Shown here: positions 3,923-30,935 of the stretch, piece after piece
Layout: each line of letters starts with the position of its first letter
How positions within the stretch are numbered: the first letter of the stretch is position 1
IMG/VR virus record: IMGVR_UViG_3300042886_000400
Coordinates: 1-30,935 of that record
Direction: 5' to 3' (one strand)
Origin: a virus
DNA: 30,935 nt
Program-made: the position numbers and the translations under genes
Notes under the pieces: generated by a model
Told to the model about the DNA's origin: nothing
The model's input: the letters and a program-made list of their open reading frames with translations, nothing else
Databases searched by the model: none

Positions 3923-4179
3923 ATCTCTGTTTGGTTAATGTATTTTTTACTGCAATATTCCCAATCACCATCAGTACACATCCCATCTAAATAAGCATCC
4001 CTCACAATTGGCTCTAAAGGGTTGAGTTGTGATTTGATATGTTTTAATATACTTAGCTGTCCTTCAGTAAATAAAGCTAAGCTATTAGTAATAAATATAT
4101 TGTCAATCTTGTTTTCGCATTCTGCTATAAGTTCTTCAATAACCTTGTTATCAATTACGATTGCTTCATTTATTTTCAT
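3919..4179 (-). CDS. Hypothetical protein, tandem paralog A
   Basis: 86 residues: MKINEAIVID, helical middle, tail PLEPIVRDAYLDGMCTDGDW...YINQTEI. Paralog of the gene immediately downstream, with nearly identical first and last segments and a diverged core. The conserved 3' end is also conserved in DNA around the overlapping ATGA junction, so duplication probably copied the junction too. Function unknown. Confidence 0.65.
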   Translation of the reverse strand: MKINEAIVIDNKVIEELIAECENKIDNIFITNSLALFTEGQLSILKHIKSQLNPLEPIVRDAYLDGMCTDGDWEYCSKKYINQTEI

Positions 4180-4706
4180 AATATTCTGATTGAGGTTGGT
4201 GTGTGTGCAAATGAATATTCCCCATTTTTTTTATGTGCTACCAATATGCTGTTTTCTTTTATTTCGATTAAATAAGTCAAAAAGTTGCCATTAAACTCAC
4301 AAGGAACATTATCATATTTCTTGATTTCTAATCCCAGGAATGTTTTTGGATGTACTTTAAATCCTAGCTTATTGATTTTGTCAAGGTCTAATAAATCGTG
4401 TCCATTTTTAGATTCGACAATAAGTAATTGTTTATATTTATGAATTATAGTATAATCGTTTAATGCGTCTCCTACTTTAAGGTTTTCATATTCTTGTTGT
4501 GTCATAGTTTCTTCTCTTATTATTTCTGCCCATTTATTTCTTTTTGAATAATAAATACACCACCAACCTTCTTTATTTTTAATGAATACATCATCATCAT
4601 CCATTACGTAATTTCCTGTTGAAGTGTGTTGGTCGTCAGTAAATACACTTCTAAACTTCGTACCTACTGGGTAGTCACGTTTTGCTTTTTCTAGTAGTTC
4701 GTTCAT
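4176..4706 (-). CDS. Hypothetical two-domain protein (YPVGTKF + KVGD modules)
   Basis: 176 residues in two parts. Residues 1-65 begin with LEKAKRDYPVGTKFRS and contain EGWWCIYYSKRNKWAEII, a compact module I associate with small phage proteins. Residues 68-176 begin TMTQQEYENLKVGD, which matches METITKEQFDNLQVGD at the start of the 130-residue protein at 5066-5458. It therefore looks like a fusion of two modules, the second shared with a neighbour. A small beta-barrel fold is a guess. No enzymatic motif seen. Confidence 0.6.
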   Translation of the reverse strand: MNELLEKAKRDYPVGTKFRSVFTDDQHTSTGNYVMDDDDVFIKNKEGWWCIYYSKRNKWAEIIREETMTQQEYENLKVGDALNDYTIIHKYKQLLIVESKNGHDLLDLDKINKLGFKVHPKTFLGLEIKKYDNVPCEFNGNFLTYLIEIKENSILVAHKKNGEYSFAHTPTSIRIL

Positions 4707-5041
4707 TATTCTAAGTTCCCTGTTTCTACGAAGTGTTGAAGTATTGGCAGTAATAATTTTACTTGTTTCCTAGTTAAGTGCATTCTTGTACTTAATAGAA
4801 CTTCTTTAGGTATTTCAAATTTTACCCAACCGTTATCATTTTCATCGTAAGTTCTTTTTCTTAATCCCATGCGGATTGCATCACATGCCATTATTTGTGG
4901 TTTAACATCATCAATCCCTAACCAAATACAATCTTCTGTTGCAAGACTTGATTTTTGAATTGAACATTCATAACCATACCTGTCTATAAATTTACCTGTT
5001 TTAAAACCTCTTTGATTATGGTTTAGTTTAATTTTGGCCAT
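4706..5041 (-). CDS. Conserved hypothetical phage protein
   Basis: 111 residues. The core phrases EDCIWLGIDD, KFEIPKEVLLSTRMHLTRKQ and LLPILQHFVETGNLE resemble a phage protein type I have seen widely in Bacteroidetes and other phages, without known function. The stop overlaps the next ATG. There are no membrane segments or catalytic motif. Confidence 0.65.
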   Translation of the reverse strand: MAKIKLNHNQRGFKTGKFIDRYGYECSIQKSSLATEDCIWLGIDDVKPQIMACDAIRMGLRKRTYDENDNGWVKFEIPKEVLLSTRMHLTRKQVKLLLPILQHFVETGNLE

Positions 5042-5065
5042 TGTTATTCCTATTTAGTTCGTTCA

Positions 5066-5458
5066 TTATTTTACAAGGTCTACATTGTTTGAAGCTAATA
5101 CAGCGAATTTAAAAAGTTCGCCACAATCATCTCTGAACCCTTCTTCGTTAACAGTTATTAATCTGGTATATATTCTTCGGATTTCACAAATCTCAATACT
5201 TGCATTACTAATCTTCACAATCACTTCTCTATCACTATAATCCCCATAAGGAAATCCGCATTTGTGCTGGATTGTTGTGGTAATTGAGTATTCCATGCCT
5301 TGTAATTCTTTTAAAGAATAAATATAAGTATATTCTTCATTCATCAATAATATTACACTATTAGCAAACTTAGCTTCTACTGATAAAGTGTATTTGTGAT
5401 TTTTCAACGTATCACCTACTTGTAAATTGTCAAATTGTTCTTTTGTTATTGTTTCCAT
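5066..5458 (-). CDS. Hypothetical KVGD-module protein
   Basis: 130 residues starting METITKEQFDNLQVGDTLKNH, homologous by eye to the second half of the 176-residue protein at 4176-4706. The middle contains HKCGFPYGDYSDREV. Probably a stand-alone copy of the same domain. Function unknown. Confidence 0.6.
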   Translation of the reverse strand: METITKEQFDNLQVGDTLKNHKYTLSVEAKFANSVILLMNEEYTYIYSLKELQGMEYSITTTIQHKCGFPYGDYSDREVIVKISNASIEICEIRRIYTRLITVNEEGFRDDCGELFKFAVLASNNVDLVK

Positions 5459-5462
5459 AATT

Positions 5463-5609
5463 TCATTTAATTAAGTGGTATATTAACGATGTTGCCCATA
5501 TACAAGCTGAGCATAAGTACCTTATTTCTTTGGTTTTGTAAAACAACCCGAAAGTAAATAGGCTTCCATAAATTGTAATCCCTAAAATAATCTCTCTAAA
5601 TATTTCCAT
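5463..5609 (-). CDS. Small membrane protein
   Basis: 48 residues, ATG at 5609 and TGA at 5463: MEIFREIILGITIYGSLFTFG... then YKTKEIRYL, then a second hydrophobic segment CSACIWATSLIYHLIK. Two short membrane segments with a basic turn are likely. It overlaps the preceding gene by 28 bases and ends 5 bases before the next ATG. Function unknown. Confidence 0.5.
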   Translation of the reverse strand: MEIFREIILGITIYGSLFTFGLFYKTKEIRYLCSACIWATSLIYHLIK

Positions 5610-5884
5610 AGTTTTTTAAATGTGAATAATTTACCGTAAATAACTTTTCCGTTGACTACCATATAGTCATACTCAAAGTAATAGTCTTCACGTTTATACC
5701 CGAATAAAGGATTTGTTTCAGTATTCATGTCAAAATTAAATGAACAGTCTACTATATAAGCCTCATTTTCAGGGTGTCTATATCCTAGATGATACATAAT
5801 TAACCCAAACACTTGCTCTCGACTTGGGGTAGGCAAGTCTTTATTTATCATTTTAAATATTATTTTGTTTAATGTTATTGTCAT
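5582..5884 (-). CDS. Hypothetical 100-residue protein
   Basis: Starts MTITLNKIIFKMINKDLPTPSRE, ends KKLWKYLERLF, rich in aromatic residues (EDYYFEYDYM). Translationally coupled to the zinc-ribbon gene upstream through an ATGA overlap at 5881-5884. No family recognised. Confidence 0.6.
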   Translation of the reverse strand: MTITLNKIIFKMINKDLPTPSREQVFGLIMYHLGYRHPENEAYIVDCSFNFDMNTETNPLFGYKREDYYFEYDYMVVNGKVIYGKLFTFKKLWKYLERLF

Positions 5885-5982
5885 GGTTTTAATAATTTAT
5901 CGCACTGGGGACAATACATCCCTAGGTGCTGGTGAGGCTTAAGGCAATTGCAACATAATTTTGTTGGTTTTAAATCTTTCAT
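5881..5982 (-). CDS. Zinc-ribbon microprotein (33 residues)
   Basis: Short frame MKDLKPTKLCCNCLKPHQH... with CCNC at 10-13 and CPQC at 24-27, the spacing of a complete four-Cys zinc ribbon. ATG at 5982, TGA at 5881 overlapping the next start. It is the first gene after the promoter at 5986-6015, and its ATG lies three bases after the -7 box, so the mRNA would be almost leaderless. The likely role is nucleic-acid or protein binding; the exact function is unknown. Promoter, coupling and motif together make it credible despite its size. Confidence 0.6.
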   Translation of the reverse strand: MKDLKPTKLCCNCLKPHQHLGMYCPQCDKLLKP

Positions 5983-5985
5983 ACG

Positions 5986-6015
5986 CAAATGTAAACAATT
6001 TTGTTTAAATTTCAA
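5986..6015 (-). promoter_or_regulatory. Promoter of the small-gene array
   Basis: Minus strand TTG (6015-6013), 19 bases, then TACATTTG (5993-5986): a full match to the Bacteroidetes -33/-7 promoter. The segment TTTAAACAAAATTG (6009-5996) resembles those at 11509 and 18245 and forms an imperfect palindrome (AAACAA-NN-TTGTTT) that may be an operator. The ATG of the zinc-ribbon gene follows the -7 box by three bases. Confidence 0.65.
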
Positions 6016-6358
6016 CTATTTTAATGCTAAATATTTTTTCTACTATTTTCTTTTTTTTCTTGTATTCTTGAGTTTTGAAGCCTTTAACGTCCTCAACAAC
6101 ATCACATTGCTTTTCAATATCGAAATAAACAAAGTCGGCAATATAAGAGCGTTTAAAGATTATTGTTTTTTCTTCAAAATTTACTCCTATTTGATGCGTT
6201 TCTATCCATGCAAATTTTACTTGACGTTGTAATCCTGTAATGATTCCATTCTTTTGCATGAAGTCTAATTCAACGGATCTTTTTGCTTCCTTTTTCGAAT
6301 CGTACATTATACCATTGTATTCTGTTTTCTTCGCCCTGTACTTTGATGGTTTATGCAT
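6005..6358 (-). CDS. DUF1064 family PD-(D/E)xK-like nuclease
   Basis: 117 residues: MHKPSKYRAKKTEYNGIMYDSKKEAKRS... The phrases DSKKEA, LQRQVKFAW, YIADFVYFD and VVEDVKGFKTQEY define the DUF1064 family. The acidic residues (E of KKEA, D of ADF, E-D-x-K of VEDVKG) fit a PD-(D/E)xK nuclease site. DUF1064 proteins are common in phage replication modules, where a Holliday-junction or flap-cleaving role has been suggested; that is not proven here. The frame extends to a TTG at 6379 inside dnaB, but the ATG at 6358 gives the family's usual N-terminus. Confidence 0.85.
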   Translation of the reverse strand: MHKPSKYRAKKTEYNGIMYDSKKEAKRSVELDFMQKNGIITGLQRQVKFAWIETHQIGVNFEEKTIIFKRSYIADFVYFDIEKQCDVVEDVKGFKTQEYKKKKKIVEKIFSIKIVEI

Positions 6359-6368
6359 ATTATTAAAT

Positions 6369-7760
6369 TTAAAATACAAATTCTGAACTGATTACTTCTT
6401 TTGGAAATGAGTTTACGCTTGGTTGTTTAAAAGTTGTTTTATTATTCAAATCCATGAATTTAGACTTTGACAAATCACAATCTATTGTTGTGAATCTAAC
6501 TTCGCCAAATCTATTTTTTGCAAATATTACCTCTGCTTTATTGGTCAAACTATTTCCATTTGCATCAACCATTTCGTTATAATATTCGGGCCTGTAAACA
6601 AACATCACTACATCTGCATCCTGCTCAATACTGCCTGATTCTCTTAAATCTGATAGCATTGGGCGTTTATTTGTACGTGATTCGCACGATCTACTAAGCT
6701 GACTTAAAGCTATCAAAGGTATTTGCAAATCTTTAGCGATTAGTTTCAAACTTCTTGAAATTTCGCTTACTTCTTGTTCTCTGCTTTTGCCCTTTCTGTT
6801 ATCGTCTTGCATTAATTGCAAATAGTCCACAATAATAAATTTAATATCATGCTTTAGTTTTAGGTTTGTAGCTTTACTTCTTAAAATCATTGGCGTTAAG
6901 CTTGAAAAATCATCCAAGAATACTTTTGTATTCCCTAGCCTTATACTTGCTTCCTGGAGTGGCATAATATCCAAGTCATGTATTTTATTTTGGTCAATGT
7001 TTCTTGAATCAACTCCACTTTCAGAGGCAATAAATTTATCAACTAATTGGTCTTTTGTCATTTCGAGTGAAAACACTACCCCTGATGCGTTATTAAAGCA
7101 AGCCATATTTCTAGCAATATTTAAAGCTAAAGTTGTTTTGCCCATACCTGGGCGACCTGCTAAAATTATTAGGCTACCATTTTTAAAATTACCTCCCATT
7201 GTTTCGTCTATTGAAACAAAGTTTGATGGAATACCTTTTATTTTTTTGTCTTTTTTGTCGTCGAGTAAGTCAATAATCCGTTCGTTTGAAAGTTTACTTA
7301 ATTCATCAATTGGCTTAACAATTAAATTATCAACTGCGGTTGAAAGTTGCAATTGAACTTTTGCCATTAACTGTAAAGGGTCGATACTTAAATTTACAGC
7401 TTCTGCGAGGCTTTTATTTGCAAAGTGTACTAATTCACGTCTAACATATAGTTCTTTCAATGTAGATATGTAAGACTGCAAATTTTGGGTACTTACAATT
7501 AAGTTATAACACTCATTTATAAAAATTATTGTACAACTTAGTCCTAAGGCTCTTGATTCTTTAGAAACTGTTAAAATATCGATACCTATATTTTTTTTAA
7601 TTAGGCTTTCTATGGCTATTATTGCATCCCTTACATTTTCATCAAAAAACATTTCGGGTTTAATTTGTGAAATGTATGTAATTGGTGCTGATGAATCGTT
7701 TAGAAAAGCTCCTAATATTGTCTTTTCAATTGTTTTGTCGTTTGGTAGATTATAGCTCAT
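6369..7760 (-). CDS. dnaB: Replicative DNA helicase DnaB
   Basis: 463 residues, the ring helicase that unwinds the phage replication fork. The N-terminal helical domain (1-105) matches DnaB-N (LPNDKTIEKTILGAFL). A linker leads to the RecA-like domain with Walker A GRPGMGKT (202-209), SLEM (231-234), Walker B IIVDYLQLM (309-317), ALSQLSRSCESR and SDLRESGSIEQDADVVMF. All expected motifs are intact. It overlaps the initiator-like gene upstream by 11 bases, so loader/initiator and helicase are made together. Confidence 0.95.
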   Translation of the reverse strand: MSYNLPNDKTIEKTILGAFLNDSSAPITYISQIKPEMFFDENVRDAIIAIESLIKKNIGIDILTVSKESRALGLSCTIIFINECYNLIVSTQNLQSYISTLKELYVRRELVHFANKSLAEAVNLSIDPLQLMAKVQLQLSTAVDNLIVKPIDELSKLSNERIIDLLDDKKDKKIKGIPSNFVSIDETMGGNFKNGSLIILAGRPGMGKTTLALNIARNMACFNNASGVVFSLEMTKDQLVDKFIASESGVDSRNIDQNKIHDLDIMPLQEASIRLGNTKVFLDDFSSLTPMILRSKATNLKLKHDIKFIIVDYLQLMQDDNRKGKSREQEVSEISRSLKLIAKDLQIPLIALSQLSRSCESRTNKRPMLSDLRESGSIEQDADVVMFVYRPEYYNEMVDANGNSLTNKAEVIFAKNRFGEVRFTTIDCDLSKSKFMDLNNKTTFKQPSVNSFPKEVISSEFVF

Positions 7761-9109: not shown

Positions 9110-11299
9110 TTAATTATTGAAATCAAGCATTAAAACACTATTTTTTTCTTCAACACAAGACTTGTGGTTTTTTGCATTAATAGTAAAATAGCTTTCTTTT
9201 AATTCAATTGATATAGATTTTCTATTCATTTTTAAAGCAGAAAATCCTTCGCTACCAATACCGCCAAATGGACTAAGTACTGTTTCTCCTTCATTTGAAT
9301 ATAAATGTAATATCCTTTCAATTGTATCTAATTGTAATGGGCAAATATGCTTTTCATCATTACCATCTCTGCCACTCCTATATTGTAATGTTCTTGAATA
9401 GTCAATATCATTCCAAACTGGAGAAGCATATTTTTGCCACAAATCAACGGGTAAGTAATCGCTTTTACTTGGGTCGGTGTCTTGGTGGGTAATTGGTATT
9501 TCATTATCACCTTCATTTCTAAAAAACAAAATATAATCAGGTATGCCTACTCTTGTCATAGAACTATCTTTTTTAATAGTTTTATGAAGCAATCCTAATG
9601 CTTTAGTTCTTTGCATTTCGGTTACTGGATTCTTCCAAATGGTTGCACGTGAATGATAAATAAATCCATTTTCTTGAAACCAATCAATCAACATTCCTGA
9701 AAAATCACGTAATCCAATATATCCTTCTTTGCCTTTTTGAATAGGCAAATCCATGCAATGAACTGCACAAATACGACCACTTTTAAGCGTTCTTTTTAAT
9801 TCAGGTATTAAGAATTTAAAATGATGTTCAAATTGCTTGTAATTGCTTACATTCCCCATATCTTCTTCTTTGTCTGAGTATACATATAATTCAGCAAAAG
9901 GAGGGCTAAAAACTACAATATCAGCACAGTTATCGGGTAGTTTTTTGGTTTCTTGAACGCAATCACCATTGATCAAATGGTAGTTATTAGTTTTAATTTC
10001 TTTATTCACGACTTTAAATTTAGATTTTGCACTTTTATAATTTGATTCACTTGAATATTTAGCCATTTCTTGAATCATTTCAATGTGTCTTTGATGTTTT
10101 TCAATAATAGATTGTCTAACATTCAATTGACTTTTAGGTACTAAAATATGAATAGTTACTTTATTAGTTTGACCGAACCTATAACAACGTCTTACAGCCT
10201 GATAAAATGCCTCAAATTTGAAATCATAAGACATAAATATCATTTGGTCGCATTGTTGGTAATTCATGCCAAAACTTGCAATACTTGTTTTAGTTACAAG
10301 TATTTTAAATTCTTTTCTAGCAAATCCATTTAAGTGTTTTGCTTTATATTCAGGACTATCAGAACCTTGAACATTTACTGCATTGTCAATTAATTTTACA
10401 ATTGTATCAGTTTCATTGTTTTTTAACCCCCAAATAATAAACTGTTTATCGTTTTCACTTACTAATTCAATTGTTTTTTTGACACGTTCTTCAAAGCTAC
10501 GATTCAAATCTTTATGCAAATCAGTTGCTGAAATTGCAACATCGCCAAATAGATTGTCAGTATTGTTTTCAACTTCGATAAAATGCTCAATAAATTCAAT
10601 TTCAGGTAAGTCATAACCAACATGATTAAATCCTAAAGTTTTAGGATTATCACAAGCCATTGACCAGGTACAAACATATTTCCAGAATGAATCTTTAGCG
10701 TGTTTTCTTAGTCGCCATTTACTTGTTTCACCACCATCATGCACAAAGTACATTGATAACATTTCAAGGTATGACATTGCTCCTATAAATTCACTATGCT
10801 GGCCAAGTTCCATGTGGTCGTTGGGTGATGGAGTTGCCGTACACGCTAATTTATAAGGCGTATTTTTAAATAACTCAATTATCATATTTGACAATTTGCC
10901 ATCACGACCTTTTAAAATTGAACTTTCATCAAGGACAATACCAGAATAAATTGAAACATCAATATTTTTCAATTGGTCATAATTAGTGATATCAAAGCAA
11001 TCCAATGAAATACCAAACTTAATAGATTCTAATTTAGTTTGTTCAACTACTGCCAATGGCGCAAGTATTAAAACTTTTTTATTAGTATAGTTATAAACTG
11101 CTTCACTCCATGATAATTGCATTAATGTTTTACCTAAACCACAATCAAAAAATAAAGCAAATTTACCTTTTCTTAATGATGTAATTACTGCATATTTTTG
11201 AAAGTCAAATAAATTAGTATTTAGTTCACTTTCATTAATTTCAAAACCACTTTCTATAAATGATTTTTTCTTAGTTTCTAAAAACTCTTTGTATTCCAT
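9110..11299 (-). CDS. SNF2-like helicase fused to a DNA methyltransferase
   Basis: 729 residues with two enzymes. Residues 25-400 are a superfamily 2 (SNF2-like) motor: Q-type LFDFQKYAV, Walker A CGLGKT (53-58), motif II LDESS (123-127), motif III TATP (154-157), motif VI RRCYRFGQ (370-377). Residues 435-729 are a beta-class N4-cytosine/N6-adenine methyltransferase: NGDC, catalytic SPPF (465-468), a target-recognition region, CPLQLDTIERI (653-663), and the AdoMet motif LSPFGGIGSEG (675-685) at the C-terminus. No nuclease domain is seen. A motor coupled to methylation could modify phage DNA during replication or block host restriction. Its ATG overlaps the RHH gene stop (TAATG). Confidence 0.9.
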   Translation of the reverse strand: MEYKEFLETKKKSFIESGFEINESELNTNLFDFQKYAVITSLRKGKFALFFDCGLGKTLMQLSWSEAVYNYTNKKVLILAPLAVVEQTKLESIKFGISLDCFDITNYDQLKNIDVSIYSGIVLDESSILKGRDGKLSNMIIELFKNTPYKLACTATPSPNDHMELGQHSEFIGAMSYLEMLSMYFVHDGGETSKWRLRKHAKDSFWKYVCTWSMACDNPKTLGFNHVGYDLPEIEFIEHFIEVENNTDNLFGDVAISATDLHKDLNRSFEERVKKTIELVSENDKQFIIWGLKNNETDTIVKLIDNAVNVQGSDSPEYKAKHLNGFARKEFKILVTKTSIASFGMNYQQCDQMIFMSYDFKFEAFYQAVRRCYRFGQTNKVTIHILVPKSQLNVRQSIIEKHQRHIEMIQEMAKYSSESNYKSAKSKFKVVNKEIKTNNYHLINGDCVQETKKLPDNCADIVVFSPPFAELYVYSDKEEDMGNVSNYKQFEHHFKFLIPELKRTLKSGRICAVHCMDLPIQKGKEGYIGLRDFSGMLIDWFQENGFIYHSRATIWKNPVTEMQRTKALGLLHKTIKKDSSMTRVGIPDYILFFRNEGDNEIPITHQDTDPSKSDYLPVDLWQKYASPVWNDIDYSRTLQYRSGRDGNDEKHICPLQLDTIERILHLYSNEGETVLSPFGGIGSEGFSALKMNRKSISIELKESYFTINAKNHKSCVEEKNSVLMLDFNN

Positions 11300-25262: not shown

Positions 25263-26263
25263 GGTCGTGCAAATGTTTGTTGAAATCTTTCATTGTTTGA
25301 AAAGCACCCATTTTTAGGCAATACCATATTTTTAAATGATATATCCATGTACTTGTTGTATTCGTTAATATAGTGGTCGTACATTCCGTTTAGTTCCTCG
25401 TTGGTATATTGACTTGTAAATATATTGAACCTCTCGGATAGCTTTGTTTCTTGGACTATTTCGCTTAGTAACAAGTAAGCCCATGCAAGTTTGAATCTGT
25501 CAATAATTGGCGCAATAAATTCTTCAAGTGAACACTTTTGATTGAAATCTAGTATTATGCCCCAAGTGTTTGCAACGCTTGTTACATTAGCTTTTACGTT
25601 TGGTTGCTTACCTGTATTGATAGCACCAACACAACTAATCGAATAACCATTTACAAATCCTGTGCTTTGCATTGCACAATCATCTTGATAGCTTGCTTGG
25701 GTTTGGTTTAATTGAAAATCATTATTATCATAGCATAAAAAATAATTAGGGTATAAATTGCCGTTGTTTTCAATTTCTAAATCCAAATAAACATCGTTGA
25801 ATCCTTCGGCTAAATCAACGGTAACGGTCTTAATCAATAAACCTTTATTTAAGTCATATATTAAGAACTCGGCATCGGTAACCGTACTATCTGAATAACA
25901 ACTAAATTGAGTTAATTGAACACGCTCATATCTATCTTGTATGCCATAAATTTTAATACCTACATAGTCATTACTTGCGCTATTCATTGTAAGCGTTTGA
26001 GGTTGTAACCCAAATTGTAATTGGTCTTTGACAATAGGCATCAAAGCACGTCTATTCAATCTATCAAGTATGCCCTCGTTTATTAACAAAGTGCATCTTT
26101 CTTGAATGTTGTCCCAGGTCGCTGAAAATGTTTTATCCTCGGAATTGCTTATTTTATCCAAAGATTTTAAGCTAACCCCTGCCATTTGATTAATCCAAAA
26201 GTTGCTTCTTGGAGTTGTTAATGTGCAAGATTTTAACCCTATATAGTCTTTAAAAATTCTCAT
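25259..26263 (-). CDS. Structural protein, possible head-tail connector
   Basis: 334 residues from ATG 26263 (MRIFKDYIGLKSCTLTT); an in-frame TTG upstream (26278) falls in the terminator hairpin and is rejected. Phrases: WINQMAGVSLKSLDKI, NDYVGIKIYGIQDRYERV, a central beta-rich domain and a helical C-terminus (LAWAYLLLSEIVQETKLS; ELNGMYDHYINEYNKYM). It follows the capsid gene across a terminator/promoter element. Adaptor or connector is likely by position, but no family was recognised. Confidence 0.6.
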   Translation of the reverse strand: MRIFKDYIGLKSCTLTTPRSNFWINQMAGVSLKSLDKISNSEDKTFSATWDNIQERCTLLINEGILDRLNRRALMPIVKDQLQFGLQPQTLTMNSASNDYVGIKIYGIQDRYERVQLTQFSCYSDSTVTDAEFLIYDLNKGLLIKTVTVDLAEGFNDVYLDLEIENNGNLYPNYFLCYDNNDFQLNQTQASYQDDCAMQSTGFVNGYSISCVGAINTGKQPNVKANVTSVANTWGIILDFNQKCSLEEFIAPIIDRFKLAWAYLLLSEIVQETKLSERFNIFTSQYTNEELNGMYDHYINEYNKYMDISFKNMVLPKNGCFSNNERFQQTFARP

Positions 26264-26266
26264 AGC

Positions 26267-26311
26267 CAAAAATAACAAAAGCCGTACATTTCTGTACGGC
26301 TTTGTGCCACT
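26267..26311 (-). promoter_or_regulatory. Candidate late promoter (copy 2 of 3) overlapping a terminator
   Basis: Minus strand AGTGGCACAA (26311-26302), 27 bases, TATTTTTG (26274-26267), then the ATG at 26263 after three bases. The gap contains the terminator hairpin (26278-26303). Same elements and spacing as at 618-662; see findings. Confidence 0.45.
26278..26303 (-). terminator. Terminator after the major capsid gene
   Basis: AAAGCCGTACA (26278-26288) and TGTACGGCTTT (26293-26303) pair perfectly around a 4-base loop (GAAA on the minus strand), a strong 11-bp stem; the minus-strand tail is TTTTGTT. It ends or attenuates the scaffold/capsid transcript in the 75-base gap between the capsid gene and the next gene. 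Confidence 0.8.
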
Positions 26312-26338
26312 TTAGACTAATTTGAACTAACAAACAAA

Positions 26339-27421
26339 TTATTCAGCAGTTGCGGTATAACGAAGTAAGCCATTAGAACCAGCTAAATCATCATAAGTAC
26401 CATAAGCGTCAGTAGGAACTACATAAACACCTGCATTGATAGACAATCTTAACAAGAAAGTATCGGTACAAGTATCAAATTCAAACTTAGCGTCATACAT
26501 TAAGTTTGGTATCATTGGGTCAGGGATAGTGAACAATGTTGCAGCGCCAAAAGTGCCTGCATATTTGCCAACATATTTATTCCATGACATAAATTGTGCA
26601 GAACCTTCGCCCATCACAATCAATTCATTAGCGCCAACAATAGTATTAACTGCTTTGTCAACGAAGAACTTGTAATCTTGAGAAACGCTTGAGAAATCAA
26701 CACCGCTATTTTGTAAGCCGTATTTATTCGTACCTAGGTCGAATTTCTCAAAGTTGCCTTTACCAATAATGATAGGAGTTCCGTAAAGTTCATTTTCTGT
26801 GAAGTCAGAAAGTAAAGTTTGGAATCCTTCAAAGATTGGCGCACCTGCAACAATCCCCGTAGCACCTACTGAAATAACAGGGATAGAAGTAGTTGTATTA
26901 ACTCCTGTCGTTGCATTGATACCAAATGAAGTAGATAATTTAGTTACTACTTCGTCATTGATAGACGTACGCATTGCATTCATCGCTGACAAGATGCGTT
27001 TACTAACTTCTTTCAAGTTGTAAGGTACAGGCAAACCAGCTACCGCGGTAGAAGCTTCTTCACAGAACACTCTAATCTCATCCATTCCTAGAGAAATGTC
27101 ATATTGACGATAAATGTCAAGTAAAGTAGTGTCTTCCACATAAGTTTGAGGATCACCAGCTACGCAGTCAGCAGTAGATTTGATAAGGTCTTTTGTTACC
27201 CTTGGTAAATATTTAACGCGTACCTCTTTAATCGTACCCGTTTTGTTTCCACCATAAACTGAAAGTATTTCAGCTGATTGGTTTTCAGGTTGAGAAAGTG
27301 CAAGTGTTGCACCTACTGGAGTTTGCTTAGTTTGTGGGTCATTAAGACCAGCAACCATTTCCAAACCTGTAAGAATTGCAGGGCATACGCCTGCGACATT
27401 GAAATCAATACCTTGTGCCAT
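26339..27421 (-). CDS. Major capsid protein
   Basis: 360 residues, directly downstream of the scaffold gene and followed by a strong terminator, the usual position. Phrases: DFNVAGVCPAILTGLEMVAG at the N-terminus, VTKDLIKSTADCVAGD, LSAMNAMRTSINDEVVTKLST, YGTPIIIGKGNFEKFDLGTN, DPMIPNLMYDAKFEFD. Acidic, beta-rich, hydrophobic C-terminal half, compatible with an HK97-type shell protein. I recognise the layout but not a precise family. Confidence 0.75.
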   Translation of the reverse strand: MAQGIDFNVAGVCPAILTGLEMVAGLNDPQTKQTPVGATLALSQPENQSAEILSVYGGNKTGTIKEVRVKYLPRVTKDLIKSTADCVAGDPQTYVEDTTLLDIYRQYDISLGMDEIRVFCEEASTAVAGLPVPYNLKEVSKRILSAMNAMRTSINDEVVTKLSTSFGINATTGVNTTTSIPVISVGATGIVAGAPIFEGFQTLLSDFTENELYGTPIIIGKGNFEKFDLGTNKYGLQNSGVDFSSVSQDYKFFVDKAVNTIVGANELIVMGEGSAQFMSWNKYVGKYAGTFGAATLFTIPDPMIPNLMYDAKFEFDTCTDTFLLRLSINAGVYVVPTDAYGTYDDLAGSNGLLRYTATAE

Positions 27422-27423
27422 AA

Positions 27424-28272
27424 TTATAAGCCGTTTGATTGTTTAGCTTTTGCTAAGTTTTGAGCAAAAGTGTTATTCACTTTTTGTGTTGGTTGTGCAT
27501 TTGCTTGTTGTGTAACTACAGGAGGTACAACGGTTGCAACGTGCAATAGATTCTTTTCGGCAAGGGCTTTTTGAATACCTGTTTTAATGTCCAAATCAGT
27601 AACGTCTAAACTTTCGTCTGATAGTCTTTTTAGCTTTAATTCACCATTTTGTAAAACAACTTTAGCGTCTTTAGATCTGAAGAAATCTGATACAGCTTGC
27701 TTAGCAAGTGATCCTCGATATTCTGAAGGGATGCTCTCAGTTATTTTATGCTGGTTAATAAAACTTGACATATTCCAATCAATTTCTTTATTAATAGATT
27801 GGTTGACTAGGTCAATGTTTGCAGATTTGAAACTTTCAACTTGATTTGATAATTCTGAAATCTTAGACTTGTATTCTAAATCTAATGCTTTCATTTTTTC
27901 ATCATTGCCACTTGCTTTTGTTTTTGCTTCGATAAGCTTGTTAGCTTCATCCGTTAATTTTGATATTCTTTTAAATGTTTTAGGTTCTGAAGCCCTTAGT
28001 TCGTTAATCTGTTCATCGCTTAGTCCAAGCCCCTTGAAAGCCAAAGTCAGTTCTTTGTCTGTCGCATCTGCAAATTCACTGAAGAATTTTGCTTTGATGT
28101 CGGGATTGTTTTTTGCTTCGTTGGCAGTTAGTAAACCACTTTCAAAAGTTTTTGCTAATTCCTCATCTATCTCAATAGTTGCGGTTAAGCCTATAAGTTG
28201 TTTTAATGATTCATTTGCTGAATCCGTTCCCACTTTCGTAGCTAATGTTGTAATAAGTTCTCCCAATAACAT
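27424..28272 (-). CDS. Capsid scaffolding-like protein
   Basis: 282 residues, highly charged and helical. Coiled coil about 85-155 (EPKTFKRISKLTDEANKLIEAK; ALDLEYKSKISELSNQVESFKS), an intermediate region (IPSEYRGSLAKQAVSDFFRS), and a Gln-rich tail ending in a basic helix (NTFAQNLAKAKQSNGL). Immediately precedes the capsid gene, as phage scaffolds do. It has no visible protease motif. Confidence 0.75.
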   Translation of the reverse strand: MLLGELITTLATKVGTDSANESLKQLIGLTATIEIDEELAKTFESGLLTANEAKNNPDIKAKFFSEFADATDKELTLAFKGLGLSDEQINELRASEPKTFKRISKLTDEANKLIEAKTKASGNDEKMKALDLEYKSKISELSNQVESFKSANIDLVNQSINKEIDWNMSSFINQHKITESIPSEYRGSLAKQAVSDFFRSKDAKVVLQNGELKLKRLSDESLDVTDLDIKTGIQKALAEKNLLHVATVVPPVVTQQANAQPTQKVNNTFAQNLAKAKQSNGL

Positions 28273-28300
28273 AAGGACAGGTTTTAGTTAGTTTTTTTTG

Positions 28301-28345
28301 CAATTTATAGCATAAGTAAAAATAAATTTACTAAATTGTGCCACT
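28301..28345 (-). promoter_or_regulatory. Divergent control region, late promoter copy 3 of 3
   Basis: Minus strand AGTGGCACAA (28345-28336) then 27 bases and ATAAATTG (28308-28301): only the final TTG fits the -7 box well, so this copy is degenerate, but its TTG sits at exactly the distance seen in the two other copies. A palindrome AATTTA-C-TAAATT (28325-28337) overlaps the 10-mer. The region also starts the rightward cassette at 28346. Confidence 0.4.
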
Positions 28346-28573
28346 ATGGAAGAATTCAAACTAAATAGGGTTGTTACTCGAATCCCAACGCCAATATTAA
28401 AATGGCTAGATTTAAGGACAAAAGGGCAGAATTATAAGCGTTCGCGAGTTTTGAAGGCGATTATAAATGAGCACAAGCTATGCGAAGACTTGACAGGTAA
28501 AACAGTTTGGCAAGTAATTAAAGATAATATTGAACTAAGAAAAGAAATATTAAAATTAAAGCGTTATGAGTAA
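28346..28573 (+). CDS. RHH-type regulator of the moron cassette
   Basis: 75 residues: MEEFKLNRVVTRIPTPILKWLDLRTKGQNYKRSRVLKAIINEHKL... A short strand (RVVTRIP) and two helices separated by a basic turn fit a ribbon-helix-helix DNA-binding protein. First gene of the rightward cassette, 73 bases from the divergent scaffold gene. Overlaps the next gene by 8 bases. It may regulate the divergent region with its palindrome at 28325-28337. Function inferred. Confidence 0.55.
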   Translation: MEEFKLNRVVTRIPTPILKWLDLRTKGQNYKRSRVLKAIINEHKLCEDLTGKTVWQVIKDNIELRKEILKLKRYE

Positions 28574-29087
28574 ACACCCTTGGAATAGTGAGGATGCAGT
28601 TAGTAGCCTAATTGCTGAATTGATTAAAATTAAAACGTGTAAAAATGTATTAGAGATTGGAGTTTTCCAAGGACAAACAGGTTTAGCAATGATTAACGCT
28701 TTGCCGAAAAATGGCACTTATACAGCGTTGGATATTACTGAAGAAAACTATACTACTGAATTTAAAACCAAATTAAAGAAACATACTTCATTAGTTGGTA
28801 ATTCATTAGAGTTGTTACATGAAATACCCAATAGAAGCGTAGACTTAATATTTATTGACAGCGTACACGAATATGCGCACCTTAGTAAAGAGTTCAAAAT
28901 ATGCGAGAATATCATTAAGCAAAATGGATTGATTGTACTACATGATTCTATACTCTTTCCTGGAGTTGCTCAATTTGTGAAGGAGTTAAAAGGCAATAAA
29001 GGATTTGAAATCTTGACACTTGAAACTCCAGAGGAGGGCGACCGTACCCCTAGTGGATTAACTATTATTAAATGCTTATATCCGTAA
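28566..29087 (+). CDS. Class I SAM-dependent methyltransferase (Methyltransf_24-like)
   Basis: 173 residues. Motif I VLEIGVFQGQT (28-38), TALDITEEN, SVDLIFIDSVHEYAHLSKEF (91-110) and GLIVLHDS (121-128) fit the Methyltransf_24/cephalosporin hydroxylase-like type that acts on small molecules or sugars. No DNA-methylase motif. With the FkbM enzyme downstream, it might modify cell-surface glycans and so alter receptors. Substrate unknown. Confidence 0.8.
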   Translation: MSKHPWNSEDAVSSLIAELIKIKTCKNVLEIGVFQGQTGLAMINALPKNGTYTALDITEENYTTEFKTKLKKHTSLVGNSLELLHEIPNRSVDLIFIDSVHEYAHLSKEFKICENIIKQNGLIVLHDSILFPGVAQFVKELKGNKGFEILTLETPEEGDRTPSGLTIIKCLYP

Positions 29088-29091
29088 TCTT

Positions 29092-29253
29092 ATGTTTGGA
29101 CTATTATTAATATTCTTGTACTTCGTGCCTTCATTGGTAGCGTACGGCAAACCTCAATTTAATCAAATTGTCGTTTTAAATATTTTTTTAGGATGGACTG
29201 GTATCGGGTGGGTAGCTAGTTTATTGTGGGCATTAAGCAATGTAAAAGAATGA
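29092..29253 (+). CDS. imm: Superinfection immunity protein (T4 Imm family)
   Basis: 53 residues with two membrane segments: MFGLLLIFLYFVPSLVAYGK and VVLNIFLGWTGIGWVASLLWALS. The 'YF.P...A' and 'LN.FLGWTGIGW..SLLWAL' patterns are those of the T4 Imm (superinfection immunity, Imm_superinfect) family, inner-membrane proteins that block DNA injection by related phages. Overlaps the following gene by four bases. Found here in a moron cassette opposed to the structural genes. Confidence 0.85.
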   Translation: MFGLLLIFLYFVPSLVAYGKPQFNQIVVLNIFLGWTGIGWVASLLWALSNVKE

Positions 29254-29453
29254 TTGATTTGACATATGAATTTATTTGCTTAACATTCTCATTTCTTGTA
29301 ACTATTGCAATACTTGTATTTTTTACCGAAAACGTGGTTAATTTTAGCCATTATTTAATGATTGGTATTTTTTGTTTTTCTTATTTAATTTTTAGAAATA
29401 CATTAAGCAAAAAAACATTCAATAGTGACTTGCCTGAACGATATAGAAAATAA
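29250..29453 (+). CDS. Two-pass membrane protein
   Basis: 67 residues from ATG 29250 (ATGA overlap with imm), MIDLTYEFICLTFSFLVTIAILVFF, then HYLMIGIFCFSYLIFR, then a basic tail (NTLSKKTFNSDLPERYRK). A longer frame from ATG 29226 lies inside imm and is less likely. Translational coupling with imm suggests a joint membrane function such as exclusion. Confidence 0.6.
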   Translation: MIDLTYEFICLTFSFLVTIAILVFFTENVVNFSHYLMIGIFCFSYLIFRNTLSKKTFNSDLPERYRK

Positions 29454-29456
29454 AAT

Positions 29457-30092
29457 ATGAGAAAACAAGCTTTAAAAGATGGTACATTTATCTATACACA
29501 CGACAAAGGCGAGTATATAAGTGACGTGATTGAGCAAACAGGGTGGTATTACGAACCTAAGACAATAGACTATATTAAGAACCTTAATTTAAAAGACTGT
29601 AATATTCTTGATATAGGGGCAAATATTGGCAATCATAGTCATGCCATGCAAAAGTTTAGTGATAATTGTCAGGTTGGGTCATTTGAACCATATCAAAAAA
29701 ACTTTGATATACTTAAAAGAAATGCTAGATTTTCTTACAACAATTTTGTAACTAATAAAAATGATGAAAAAAATTATAGTATTGCTCCAGTTTGGGGAGG
29801 TGCCAATTTAGGCTATATTACATCAAGTAAAGATGGCGAAAAAGTTAATAATACATTTATTGATTACTATGAACTTGATAATATAGGACTAATTAAAATT
29901 GACATTGAAGGTCACGAATTAGAAGCTTTAAAAGGGGCGTTTAATACCATTAAAAAAAGTACCCCTTGCATCATTGCTGAACACCATACCAATGAAGAAC
30001 ACATTCAAGTATTGGACTATCTAAAGCAGTTTGGGTATAAGCTTGAAACAATAATTAAAGAAGATAATCTAAACTATGTTTATACGATTTAA
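29457..30092 (+). CDS. FkbM family methyltransferase
   Basis: 211 residues. AdoMet motif ILDIGANIGNHS (50-61), GSFEPYQKNFDILKRN (74-89), and IGLIKIDIEGHELEALKGA (143-161) are FkbM signatures. FkbM enzymes methylate sugars or polyketides, often on surface polysaccharides. In a phage moron cassette beside an Imm-like protein, receptor modification by glycan methylation is plausible but not proven. Confidence 0.85.
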   Translation: MRKQALKDGTFIYTHDKGEYISDVIEQTGWYYEPKTIDYIKNLNLKDCNILDIGANIGNHSHAMQKFSDNCQVGSFEPYQKNFDILKRNARFSYNNFVTNKNDEKNYSIAPVWGGANLGYITSSKDGEKVNNTFIDYYELDNIGLIKIDIEGHELEALKGAFNTIKKSTPCIIAEHHTNEEHIQVLDYLKQFGYKLETIIKEDNLNYVYTI

Positions 30093-30102
30093 CTAAAAAA
30101 GT

Positions 30103-30261
30103 ATGATAGAATTAATGTCACATGAAACCAAAACTGAACTGTATGAATCATTAGTTACTATTTTAAACAATGAAATTGAAGAATTGAAACATTCAAGTGA
30201 AATATTAATCCATGAAAATAAGTTCTTAAAAGATACAATATTAAAACTAATTAAACCTTAA
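30103..30261 (+). CDS. Coiled-coil microprotein, paralog 1
   Basis: 52 residues: MIELMSHETKTELYESLVTILNNEIEELKHSSEILIHENK..., predicted coiled coil. The C-terminal 20 residues are identical to those of the gene at 30491-30721, as part of a 69-bp repeat. Function unknown; possibly binds the upstream or downstream product. Confidence 0.55.
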   Translation: MIELMSHETKTELYESLVTILNNEIEELKHSSEILIHENKFLKDTILKLIKP

Positions 30262-30266
30262 TAAAT
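30198..30266 (+). repeat. 69-bp direct repeat, copy 1
   Basis: Identical base for base to 30658-30726. It covers the last 20 codons and stop of the coiled-coil gene plus AATAAAT. Copy 2 also covers the last codons of the minor head gene on the opposite strand. The 460-base unit between the start of each copy holds the membrane protein gene at 30278, so it looks like a recent duplication with insertion. Confidence 0.9.
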
Positions 30267-30277
30267 AATCCAAAAGT

Positions 30278-30481
30278 ATGATATACCTAAAATTAATATC
30301 TGTTATAATAGTATTTTTACTTGGTGGTTTATTTGGATATAAACAGTCTGAAGGAGGTAATTTAAGTTTAAGGTTGTTTTTTATATTTATATTTTCATGG
30401 ATTGCACAATGTGTATTTATTTCAGTTGCTTGTATTAGCTTCCTATTTTATTATTTATTAATAGAATTTATAATTAAATAA
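30278..30481 (+). CDS. Two-pass membrane protein in repeat-bounded insertion
   Basis: 67 residues: MIYLKLISVIIVFLLGGLFGYKQSEGG, then RLFFIFIFSWIAQCVFISVACISFLFYYLLIEF. Two long hydrophobic segments with a short polar loop. AAAAGTATGAT precedes the ATG as in the gene at 30491 and nearly so at 30103. Function unknown; a phage exclusion role is speculative. Confidence 0.55.
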   Translation: MIYLKLISVIIVFLLGGLFGYKQSEGGNLSLRLFFIFIFSWIAQCVFISVACISFLFYYLLIEFIIK

Positions 30482-30490
30482 TCCAAAAGT

Positions 30491-30721
30491 ATGATTATGT
30501 ACAATATAAAGTTTCAATATCCAAGTTTATTGGATATGATAATTGACGAGCAATTAAATTTTAAACCAAAAAGCATGAGTGATAAAGAAAAAATTGAATC
30601 GTATGAATTATTAGTTACTAAACTAAATAATGAAATTAAAGATTTGCAATCTAAAAATGAAATATTAATCCATGAAAATAAGTTCTTAAAAGATACAATA
30701 TTAAAACTAATTAAACCTTAA
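30491..30721 (+). CDS. Coiled-coil microprotein, paralog 2
   Basis: 76 residues: MIMYNIKFQYPSLLDMIIDEQLNFKPKSMSDKEKIESYELLVTKLNNEIKDLQ... The C-terminal half is the same coiled coil as in the gene at 30103 (YELLVTKLNNEIKDL vs YESLVTILNNEIEEL), and the last 20 residues are identical. Its 3' end overlaps convergently with the minor head protein gene. Confidence 0.6.
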   Translation: MIMYNIKFQYPSLLDMIIDEQLNFKPKSMSDKEKIESYELLVTKLNNEIKDLQSKNEILIHENKFLKDTILKLIKP

Positions 30722-30726
30722 TAAAT
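30658..30726 (+). repeat. 69-bp direct repeat, copy 2
   Basis: Identical to 30198-30266. It spans the end of the coiled-coil gene and, on the other strand, the stop codon (30707-30709) of the head protein gene. Confidence 0.9.
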
Positions 30727-30935
30727 CTGCTTTAGGTACCATCTTTTCACTTACAGGTAGTATTTGGTGATTACATTGCCAACCTCCCCTGTAAGTGAAA
30801 ATATTACTTGAATTTGTTCCTGCAATCATTCCACCGCCTTTGTGCAACTTCGTTTTACAAGTATTCCATAATGAAGGCGTTTCTCCCCAATGTTCCACCT
30901 CTGTAACGTGAAAATATTTATCAACACGATCCAAA
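30707..30935 (-). CDS. Probable minor head (MuF-like) protein, C-terminal end only
   Basis: The frame enters from the right edge and stops at 30707. The last 75 residues (HVTEVEHWGETPSLWNTC, LHKGGGMIAGTNSSN, FTYRGGWQCNHQILPVSE) look like the C-terminus of MuF/minor head proteins, where a 'RGGW.C.H...P' phrase is common. The N-terminus, and probably the portal gene, lie beyond the window. The in-frame TTG at 30934 is at the edge and is not a start. Confidence 0.6.
   Translation of the reverse strand, partial: LDRVDKYFHVTEVEHWGETPSLWNTCKTKLHKGGGMIAGTNSSNIFTYRGGWQCNHQILPVSEKMVPKADLLRFN

What the first reader, a model, noticed from the sequence alone, without database searches (positions are those of the whole stretch)
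28346..30721. Moron cassette with Imm-type exclusion protein and two methyltransferases
Eight plus-strand genes stand between the scaffold and the minor head protein, both minus strand, which is where capsid genes should run without interruption. The cassette has its own RHH gene, a T4 Imm family protein, membrane proteins, a Methyltransf_24-like enzyme and an FkbM enzyme. This looks like an acquired anti-superinfection and surface-modification unit.
Basis: partly seen in the sequence, partly recalled or inferred. Interest (0 to 1): 0.62.

Follow-up and report, generated by a model that had tools for sequence, protein, structure and literature searches.

The report
Exchangeable sugar-methylation and exclusion gene cassette
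In an uncultured group of bacterial viruses, a small backwards-running gene set sits inside the head-building genes; it carries two enzymes that look like sugar methylators and a relative of a protein that blocks rival viruses, it is swapped between viruses, and a putative sugar-attaching enzyme beside the portal gene suggests that it decorates either the virus particle or the host surface.

Summary
Eight plus-strand ORFs (28346-30721) lie antisense between two minus-strand head-module genes. Pfam confirms g2 (Methyltransf_24/Methyltransf_3), g3 (Imm_superinfect, PF14373) and g5 (FkbM, PF05050). The 'RHH' label for g1 was not confirmed.

All 9 close relatives that cover the site carry a cassette there, with varying content (OMT 9/9, g1-like 8/9, Imm 8/9, FkbM 6/9). 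A more distant relative (L103) has an empty site (69 bp), and 0 of 96 sister-clade contigs carry this cassette there. L016's OMT is 89-93% identical to that of L008/L009 although the flanking head genes are only 38-43% identical: horizontal exchange. So it is an acquired, exchangeable cassette.

The cassette is best read as the accessory methylating part of a phage-encoded glycan system plus Imm exclusion. New variant of a known kind.

The parts
28273..28345 (+). Divergent intergenic region; putative cassette promoter (TAAATTG near the Bacteroidota -7 consensus TAnnTTTG, which is recalled) and AGTAAA-N6-TTTACT palindrome read by eye
   Evidence: L007, L008 and L009 have exact TAnnTTTG in the aligned place; palindrome shared only with L002; no test of function
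28346..28573 (+). g1, 75 aa, putative small DNA-binding regulator (RHH-like by eye, unconfirmed)
   Evidence: homologue in 8 of 9 covered relatives; no family match
28566..29087 (+). g2, 173 aa, class I O-methyltransferase (Methyltransf_24/Methyltransf_3)
   Evidence: profile matches many solved O-methyltransferases; in 9 of 9 covered relatives
29092..29253 (+). g3, 53 aa, Imm_superinfect family (PF14373), two hydrophobic segments
29250..29453 (+). g4, small membrane protein, ATGA overlap with g3 (also listed with GTG start 29226)
   Evidence: relatives in L002 and L006
29457..30092 (+). g5, 211 aa, FkbM-family methyltransferase (PF05050)
30103..30261 (+). g6, 52 aa, coiled-coil-like; 3' part duplicated in g8
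30278..30481 (+). g7, 67 aa, two hydrophobic segments
   Evidence: 37% relative in L003
30491..30721 (+). g8, 76 aa, coiled-coil-like
   Evidence: 83% relative in L003
27424..28272 (-). Left flank: head-module gene (scaffold by position)
   Evidence: no convincing family match
30707..30934 (-). Right flank: C-terminal part of head gene, truncated by contig end

Best explanation
The stretch is an exchangeable accessory (moron) cassette at an antisense insertion hotspot inside the head module of an uncultured, probably Bacteroidota-infecting phage group. It is the methylating part of a phage-encoded glycan system plus a superinfection-exclusion gene. A GT8-like glycosyltransferase next to the portal gene (outside this truncated window, seen in all its relatives) puts a sugar on a substrate made with the capsid, most likely a virion protein. 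The cassette's O-methyltransferase (g2) and, where present, the FkbM methyltransferase (g5) O-methylate that sugar. Imm (g3), perhaps helped by the small membrane proteins, blocks DNA entry of competing phages. Swapping cassettes changes the methyl caps and the exclusion gene without touching the capsid genes. Shown: gene families of g2, g3 and g5, position, exchange, empty sites, linkage of the OMT lineage to the glycosyltransferase and portal. Inferred: that glycosyltransferase and OMT act on one glycan, that the glycan is on the virion, that Imm is active, own promoter and regulator.
For: Families. GT8-like protein: invariant D-x-D, PDB profile match to GT8 enzymes (4.6e-5 best), AF2 pLDDT 86, best folds glycogenin and LgtC. 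Glycosyltransferase precedes the portal in 113 of 113 covered contigs; OMT between them in 97 of 99 sister-clade contigs, 71 of 73 in the portal-fetched set. Other sugar enzymes at the same hotspot or beside the portal: c33 glycosyltransferase, GT2-like gene. L103, with the empty site, carries GT11, GT47, GT2, Methyltransf_24 and FkbM genes elsewhere. Exchange. Imm: 11 of 12 clade-A records.
Against: No biochemical or virion data. In the window clade the OMT is antisense to the head genes, so it need not be expressed late. c2 scores below Pfam cut-off on its own, as do some other sugar-enzyme hits. Imm sits with the methyltransferases, which suits a host-side role. FkbM is missing from 3 of 9 covered cassettes. 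15 of 96 sister-clade contigs have antisense genes of no known sugar role at the hotspot.
Confidence: 0.42

Rival explanations
1. Host-surface conversion: the methyltransferases O-methylate a surface polysaccharide or LPS of the infected or carrier cell so that competing phages cannot adsorb, and Imm stops DNA entry of those that do; one two-layer anti-superinfection unit.
For: Imm and the methyltransferases share one compact unit antisense to the head genes. Surface glycosylation plus entry block is known from P22 (gtr and sieA; passages of PMC11436027). FkbM and Methyltransf_24 enzymes often act on polysaccharides (recalled).
Against: The OMT's sister-clade relatives lie in the head gene cluster beside the portal, in sense, with the GT8-like gene. 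No flippase-like set was seen in the cassette. No integrase (0 of 9) or resolvase (0 of 20), so a lysogen needing protection is not shown (records are mostly fragments).
Confidence: 0.35
2. A loose collection: the junction tolerates antisense insertions, and the genes have unrelated small roles, or little function, without forming one system.
For: Other antisense genes without a known sugar role occur at the site in the sister clade (4 TM/coiled-coil and 11 other of 96 covered); cassette tails differ even between near-identical phages.
Against: OMT in 9 of 9 and Imm in 8 of 9 covered clade-A cassettes despite turnover; sugar-enzyme themes recur at the site and beside the portal.
Confidence: 0.16
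3. DNA hypermodification: glycosyltransferase and methyltransferases modify bases of the phage genome against restriction.
For: Some PHROG and PADLOC DNA-methyltransferase models score the OMT; 44 of 73 portal-fetched OMTs have an AT-hook-like N-terminal motif, which the window's OMT lacks.
Against: The profile matches O-methyltransferases; the GT8-like fold is nearest glycogenin/LgtC; the thymidylate synthase keeps the canonical LPFN motif, so no sign of a hydroxymethylase (residue rule recalled).
Confidence: 0.07

Closest known systems
Phage T4 Imm / Imm_superinfect family (PF14373)
   Same: g3 matches the family over its full 42 positions, above cut-off, with two hydrophobic segments
   Different: 53 aa, inside a methyltransferase cassette in the head module; activity untested
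Virion glycosylation of mycobacteriophages Che8, Corndog and Myrna (passages of PMC11256854 and PMC12363180)
   Same: Phage-encoded glycosyltransferases that decorate head or tail proteins
   Different: Here a GT8-like gene is a fixed neighbour of the portal and is paired with a methyltransferase; no virion glycan shown
Chlorovirus PBCV-1 A064R, capsid glycan enzyme (passages of PMC5408694)
   Same: Viral glycosyltransferase plus a predicted methyltransferase thought to cap a capsid glycan
   Different: Fused in one protein, eukaryotic virus; here separate genes, one in an exchangeable cassette
P22 gtrABC / sieA superinfection exclusion (passages of PMC11436027)
   Same: Same logic as the host-surface rival: surface sugar change plus block of DNA entry
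   Different: Glucosylation by a flippase/glycosyltransferase set from a prophage; here methyltransferases, and no sign of lysogeny

Membership tests
Imm_superinfect (PF14373) | Match to the family profile above curated cut-off | tested here: met
   51.5 bits against 27.9; 11 of 12 clade-A records
Imm_superinfect (PF14373) | Blocks DNA entry of superinfecting phage | not testable with these tools
   No phenotype available
FkbM methyltransferases (PF05050/TIGR01444) | Profile match above cut-off | tested here: met
   Pfam 64.3 against 22.7 bits; TIGR01444 67 against 37.7
Methyltransf_24 / O-methyltransferase (PF13578, PF01596) | Profile match above cut-off | tested here: met
   57 against 26.3 and 54.9 against 22 bits
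Ribbon-helix-helix regulator (g1) | Match to an RHH family or fold | tested here: inconclusive
   No family, PDB sequence or fold match; low-confidence model
Moron / accessory cassette | Absent from, or replaced at, the same site in relatives | tested here: met
   L103 empty; 68 of 96 sister-clade contigs under 250 bp, none with the OMT/Imm cassette
Moron / accessory cassette | Own promoter and terminator | tested here: inconclusive
   Promoter-like site only by eye; no terminator found
GT8 glycosyltransferase (c2, outside the window) | GT-A fold nearest GT8 enzymes, conserved D-x-D | tested here: met
   Pfam alone below cut-off
Virion glycosylation system | Glycan covalently bound to a virion protein | not testable with these tools
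   Needs virion mass spectrometry

The most novel reading that the evidence does not exclude
A whole uncultured phage group builds a glycosylated, O-methylated virion: the glycosyltransferase is a fixed neighbour of the portal gene, and in this clade the methylating step moved into an antisense, swappable cassette that also carries superinfection exclusion, giving a virion-glycan variation locus coupled to competitor exclusion.
Probability: 0.3. Interest if true: 0.75.

Novelty: new variant of a known kind. Interest (0 to 1): 0.5.

Why it matters
If true, a glycosyltransferase-methyltransferase pair is a fixed part of the head gene cluster of a phage group whose portal and MCP have no relative detectable by tblastn among 50,697 phage records, and phages can swap the glycan cap together with an exclusion gene as one unit. 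That would make 'why do phages glycosylate virions, and who is the audience?' testable by comparing natural cassette variants.

Tried and rejected
DNA-level search of the cassette in named phages found nothing. The sister-clade portal alignment found no encoded relative in genome contigs, so no host or prophage was identified. Integrase PF00589: 0 of 9 records; resolvase PF00239: 0 of 20; the records are mostly fragments, so temperateness is unresolved. PADLOC: g2 hits mad2 (4.3e-9) and weak MTase_II models, taken as shared methyltransferase fold, not a defence system. DNA hypermodification was considered and given a low weight (see rivals). Closing the window into a circle across its ends was considered and dropped: no terminal repeat, and in the relatives the head gene is preceded by the portal, not by the window's left-end gene. 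RNA families and tRNAs: none. Terminators around the cassette: none. Testing g1 as RHH by PDB sequence and fold search led nowhere, nor did the unrelated 46-aa ORF at the head of L016's cassette. Literature searches for this phage group or for the glycosyltransferase/portal pairing gave no matching paper in the listings (open-access PMC library only).

A caution on counts: a first grouping of loci merged different contigs; the counts used come, where 181 loci with a portal gave 119 distinct contigs (13 clade A, L103, 105 sister clade). Sister-clade contigs were fetched through the OMT or through a portal alignment that itself came from OMT-bearing loci; the portal-fetched count is 71 of 73 covered, 7 of 80 not covered. 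In the cellular comparison 25 of 66 rows were put in the tree.

Full report
What is there. The window is a 30,935-base viral record, without terminal repeats. Eight plus-strand ORFs occupy 28346-30721 between minus-strand genes of the head module. g1-g2 overlap by 8 bp, g3-g4 share ATGA, and g5 follows three bases after g4, so they look like one transcription unit. Pfam supports g2 as an O-methyltransferase, g3 as Imm_superinfect and g5 as FkbM, all above curated cut-offs. g3, g4 and g7 each have two hydrophobic segments. g6 and g8 share a 137-nt repeat, 88% identical, on either side of g7. g1 could not be assigned: its sequence looks RHH-like to the eye, but no library, PDB search or fold comparison supports it. 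The names of the flanking genes are mostly positional.

Is it acquired? Eight relatives were found by MCP, and L016 through the OMT scan. All nine have antisense genes at the same junction: OMT 9/9, g1-like 8/9 (not L016), Imm 8/9 (not L005), FkbM 6/9 (not L004, L008, L016). Four further clade members found by portal (L098, L099, L100, L102) do not cover the whole site; L098 shows FkbM and Imm before its end. One step out, L103 (portal 37% identical) has the same gene order with 69 bp between head and scaffold genes. Of 105 sister-clade contigs, 9 do not cover the junction and 96 do; of these 96, 68 have gaps under 250 bp, 7 an antisense glycosyltransferase-like gene, 4 an antisense TM/coiled-coil gene, 11 other antisense ORFs of 60 aa or more, 6 larger gaps without such ORFs, and none carries the OMT/Imm cassette there. 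So the junction is an antisense insertion hotspot.

Is it exchanged? L016 is only 38-43% identical to L008/L009 in C4, GT, portal, head, scaffold and MCP, yet its OMT is 89-93% identical to theirs (86-88% at DNA level), and the tree places these three together. Conversely the window-type phages (rows L002, L003, L007) and L008/L009 share 80-83% of MCP but only 42-43% of OMT. Against L002, its closest relative (97.4% over 26001-30113), the window matches to about 29950, then loses similarity until the flank resumes at 30708; L006 shares stretches of 78 and 70 bp at 100% with the two repeat copies. These are marks of recombination within the cassette.

What the OMT belongs to. Scanning with the OMT alignment found 157 relatives, of which the best 80 were kept. 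In the sister clade the gene lies in sense between a gene of about 306-336 aa (c2) and the portal: 97 of 99 contigs with the stretch covered; the other two (L123, L126) have a weakly GT2-like gene there. Among loci fetched by portal, 71 of 73 covered have it. In 93 of 97 the OMT frame overlaps the end of c2, but starts were taken as the first possible codon, so this is an upper estimate. c2 precedes the portal in 113 of 113 covered contigs, including all 13 clade-A contigs and L103. c2 is a GT8-like glycosyltransferase: invariant D-x-D, PDB profile matches to a GT8-type galactosyltransferase and glycogenin (best 4.6e-5), AF2 model pLDDT 86.3 whose best Foldseek matches are glycogenin, WbbM and LgtC. 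Pfam alone is weak (7.6e-4 in L019, below cut-off). In the OMT tree 24 of 25 cellular rows fall outside the phage OMTs with 100/100 support; L208, on a very long branch, falls inside, and the program warns of long branches. No cellular hit exceeded 34% identity over most of the protein (one short stretch at 40%).

A sugar theme around the head genes. The antisense gene c33 at the hotspot matches Glyco_transf_7C just over cut-off and GT2 weakly. A gene of about 223 aa beside the OMT is GT2-like but below cut-off. L103, with the empty site, has GT11, Methyltransf_24, GT47 and GT2 genes close together and an FkbM gene near them elsewhere in its record. Imm is confined to clade A in what was tested: 11 of 12 clade-A records, not L103, not 7 sister-clade records.

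How it most likely works. The glycosyltransferase attaches a sugar, most likely to a virion protein because it is a fixed neighbour of the portal; g2 and g5 methylate it; Imm excludes competitors. Precedents for phage glycosyltransferases decorating capsid or tail proteins stand in passages of PMC11256854 and PMC12363180, and for a viral glycosyltransferase with a predicted methyltransferase on a capsid glycan in passages of PMC5408694. Sequence cannot separate the two; I put them at 0.42 and 0.35. DNA modification is unlikely: the thymidylate synthase is canonical at the LPFN motif and the OMT profile matches O-methyltransferases.

Limits. Host and lifestyle are unknown: TAnnTTTG promoter-like sites before several genes suggest Bacteroidota (the consensus is recalled), and no integrase or resolvase was found in mostly fragmentary records. 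Sister-clade sampling leans on OMT-bearing phages. No phenotype exists for any gene here.

Noticed in passing
L254 (G009 4033-7224) and G009:7476-7919: The empty-site relative L103 carries GT11, Methyltransf_24, GT47 and GT2 genes and an FkbM gene elsewhere in its record.
   Followed up: partly
window 30130-30266 and 30590-30726: 137-nt direct repeat (88%) shared by g6 and g8; L006 has 78- and 70-bp stretches 100% identical to the two copies.
   Followed up: partly
sister-clade OMT N-termini, e.g. L034:7902-8504: AT-hook-like GRPKK motif in 44 of 73 portal-fetched sister-clade OMTs; absent from the window's OMT.
   Followed up: no
L038:11393-12148, L054, L055, L118: Antisense genes with an N-terminal hydrophobic stretch and a long coiled-coil-like part at the same head/scaffold junction in 4 sister-clade contigs.
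   Followed up: no
window 653, 26302, 28336 (+): The 9-mer TTGTGCCAC occurs exactly three times, all between genes, one just before g1; not significant with one mismatch allowed.
   Followed up: no
window 9110-11299 (-): Helicase domains joined to an N6/N4 DNA methylase domain in one 729-aa protein.
   Followed up: no
L060 and L072 (contig IMGVR_UViG_3300037493_001386, 62,297 b): One contig with two OMT-portal loci about 35 kb apart, the usual genome length of its relatives; possibly a concatemeric or chimeric assembly.
   Followed up: no
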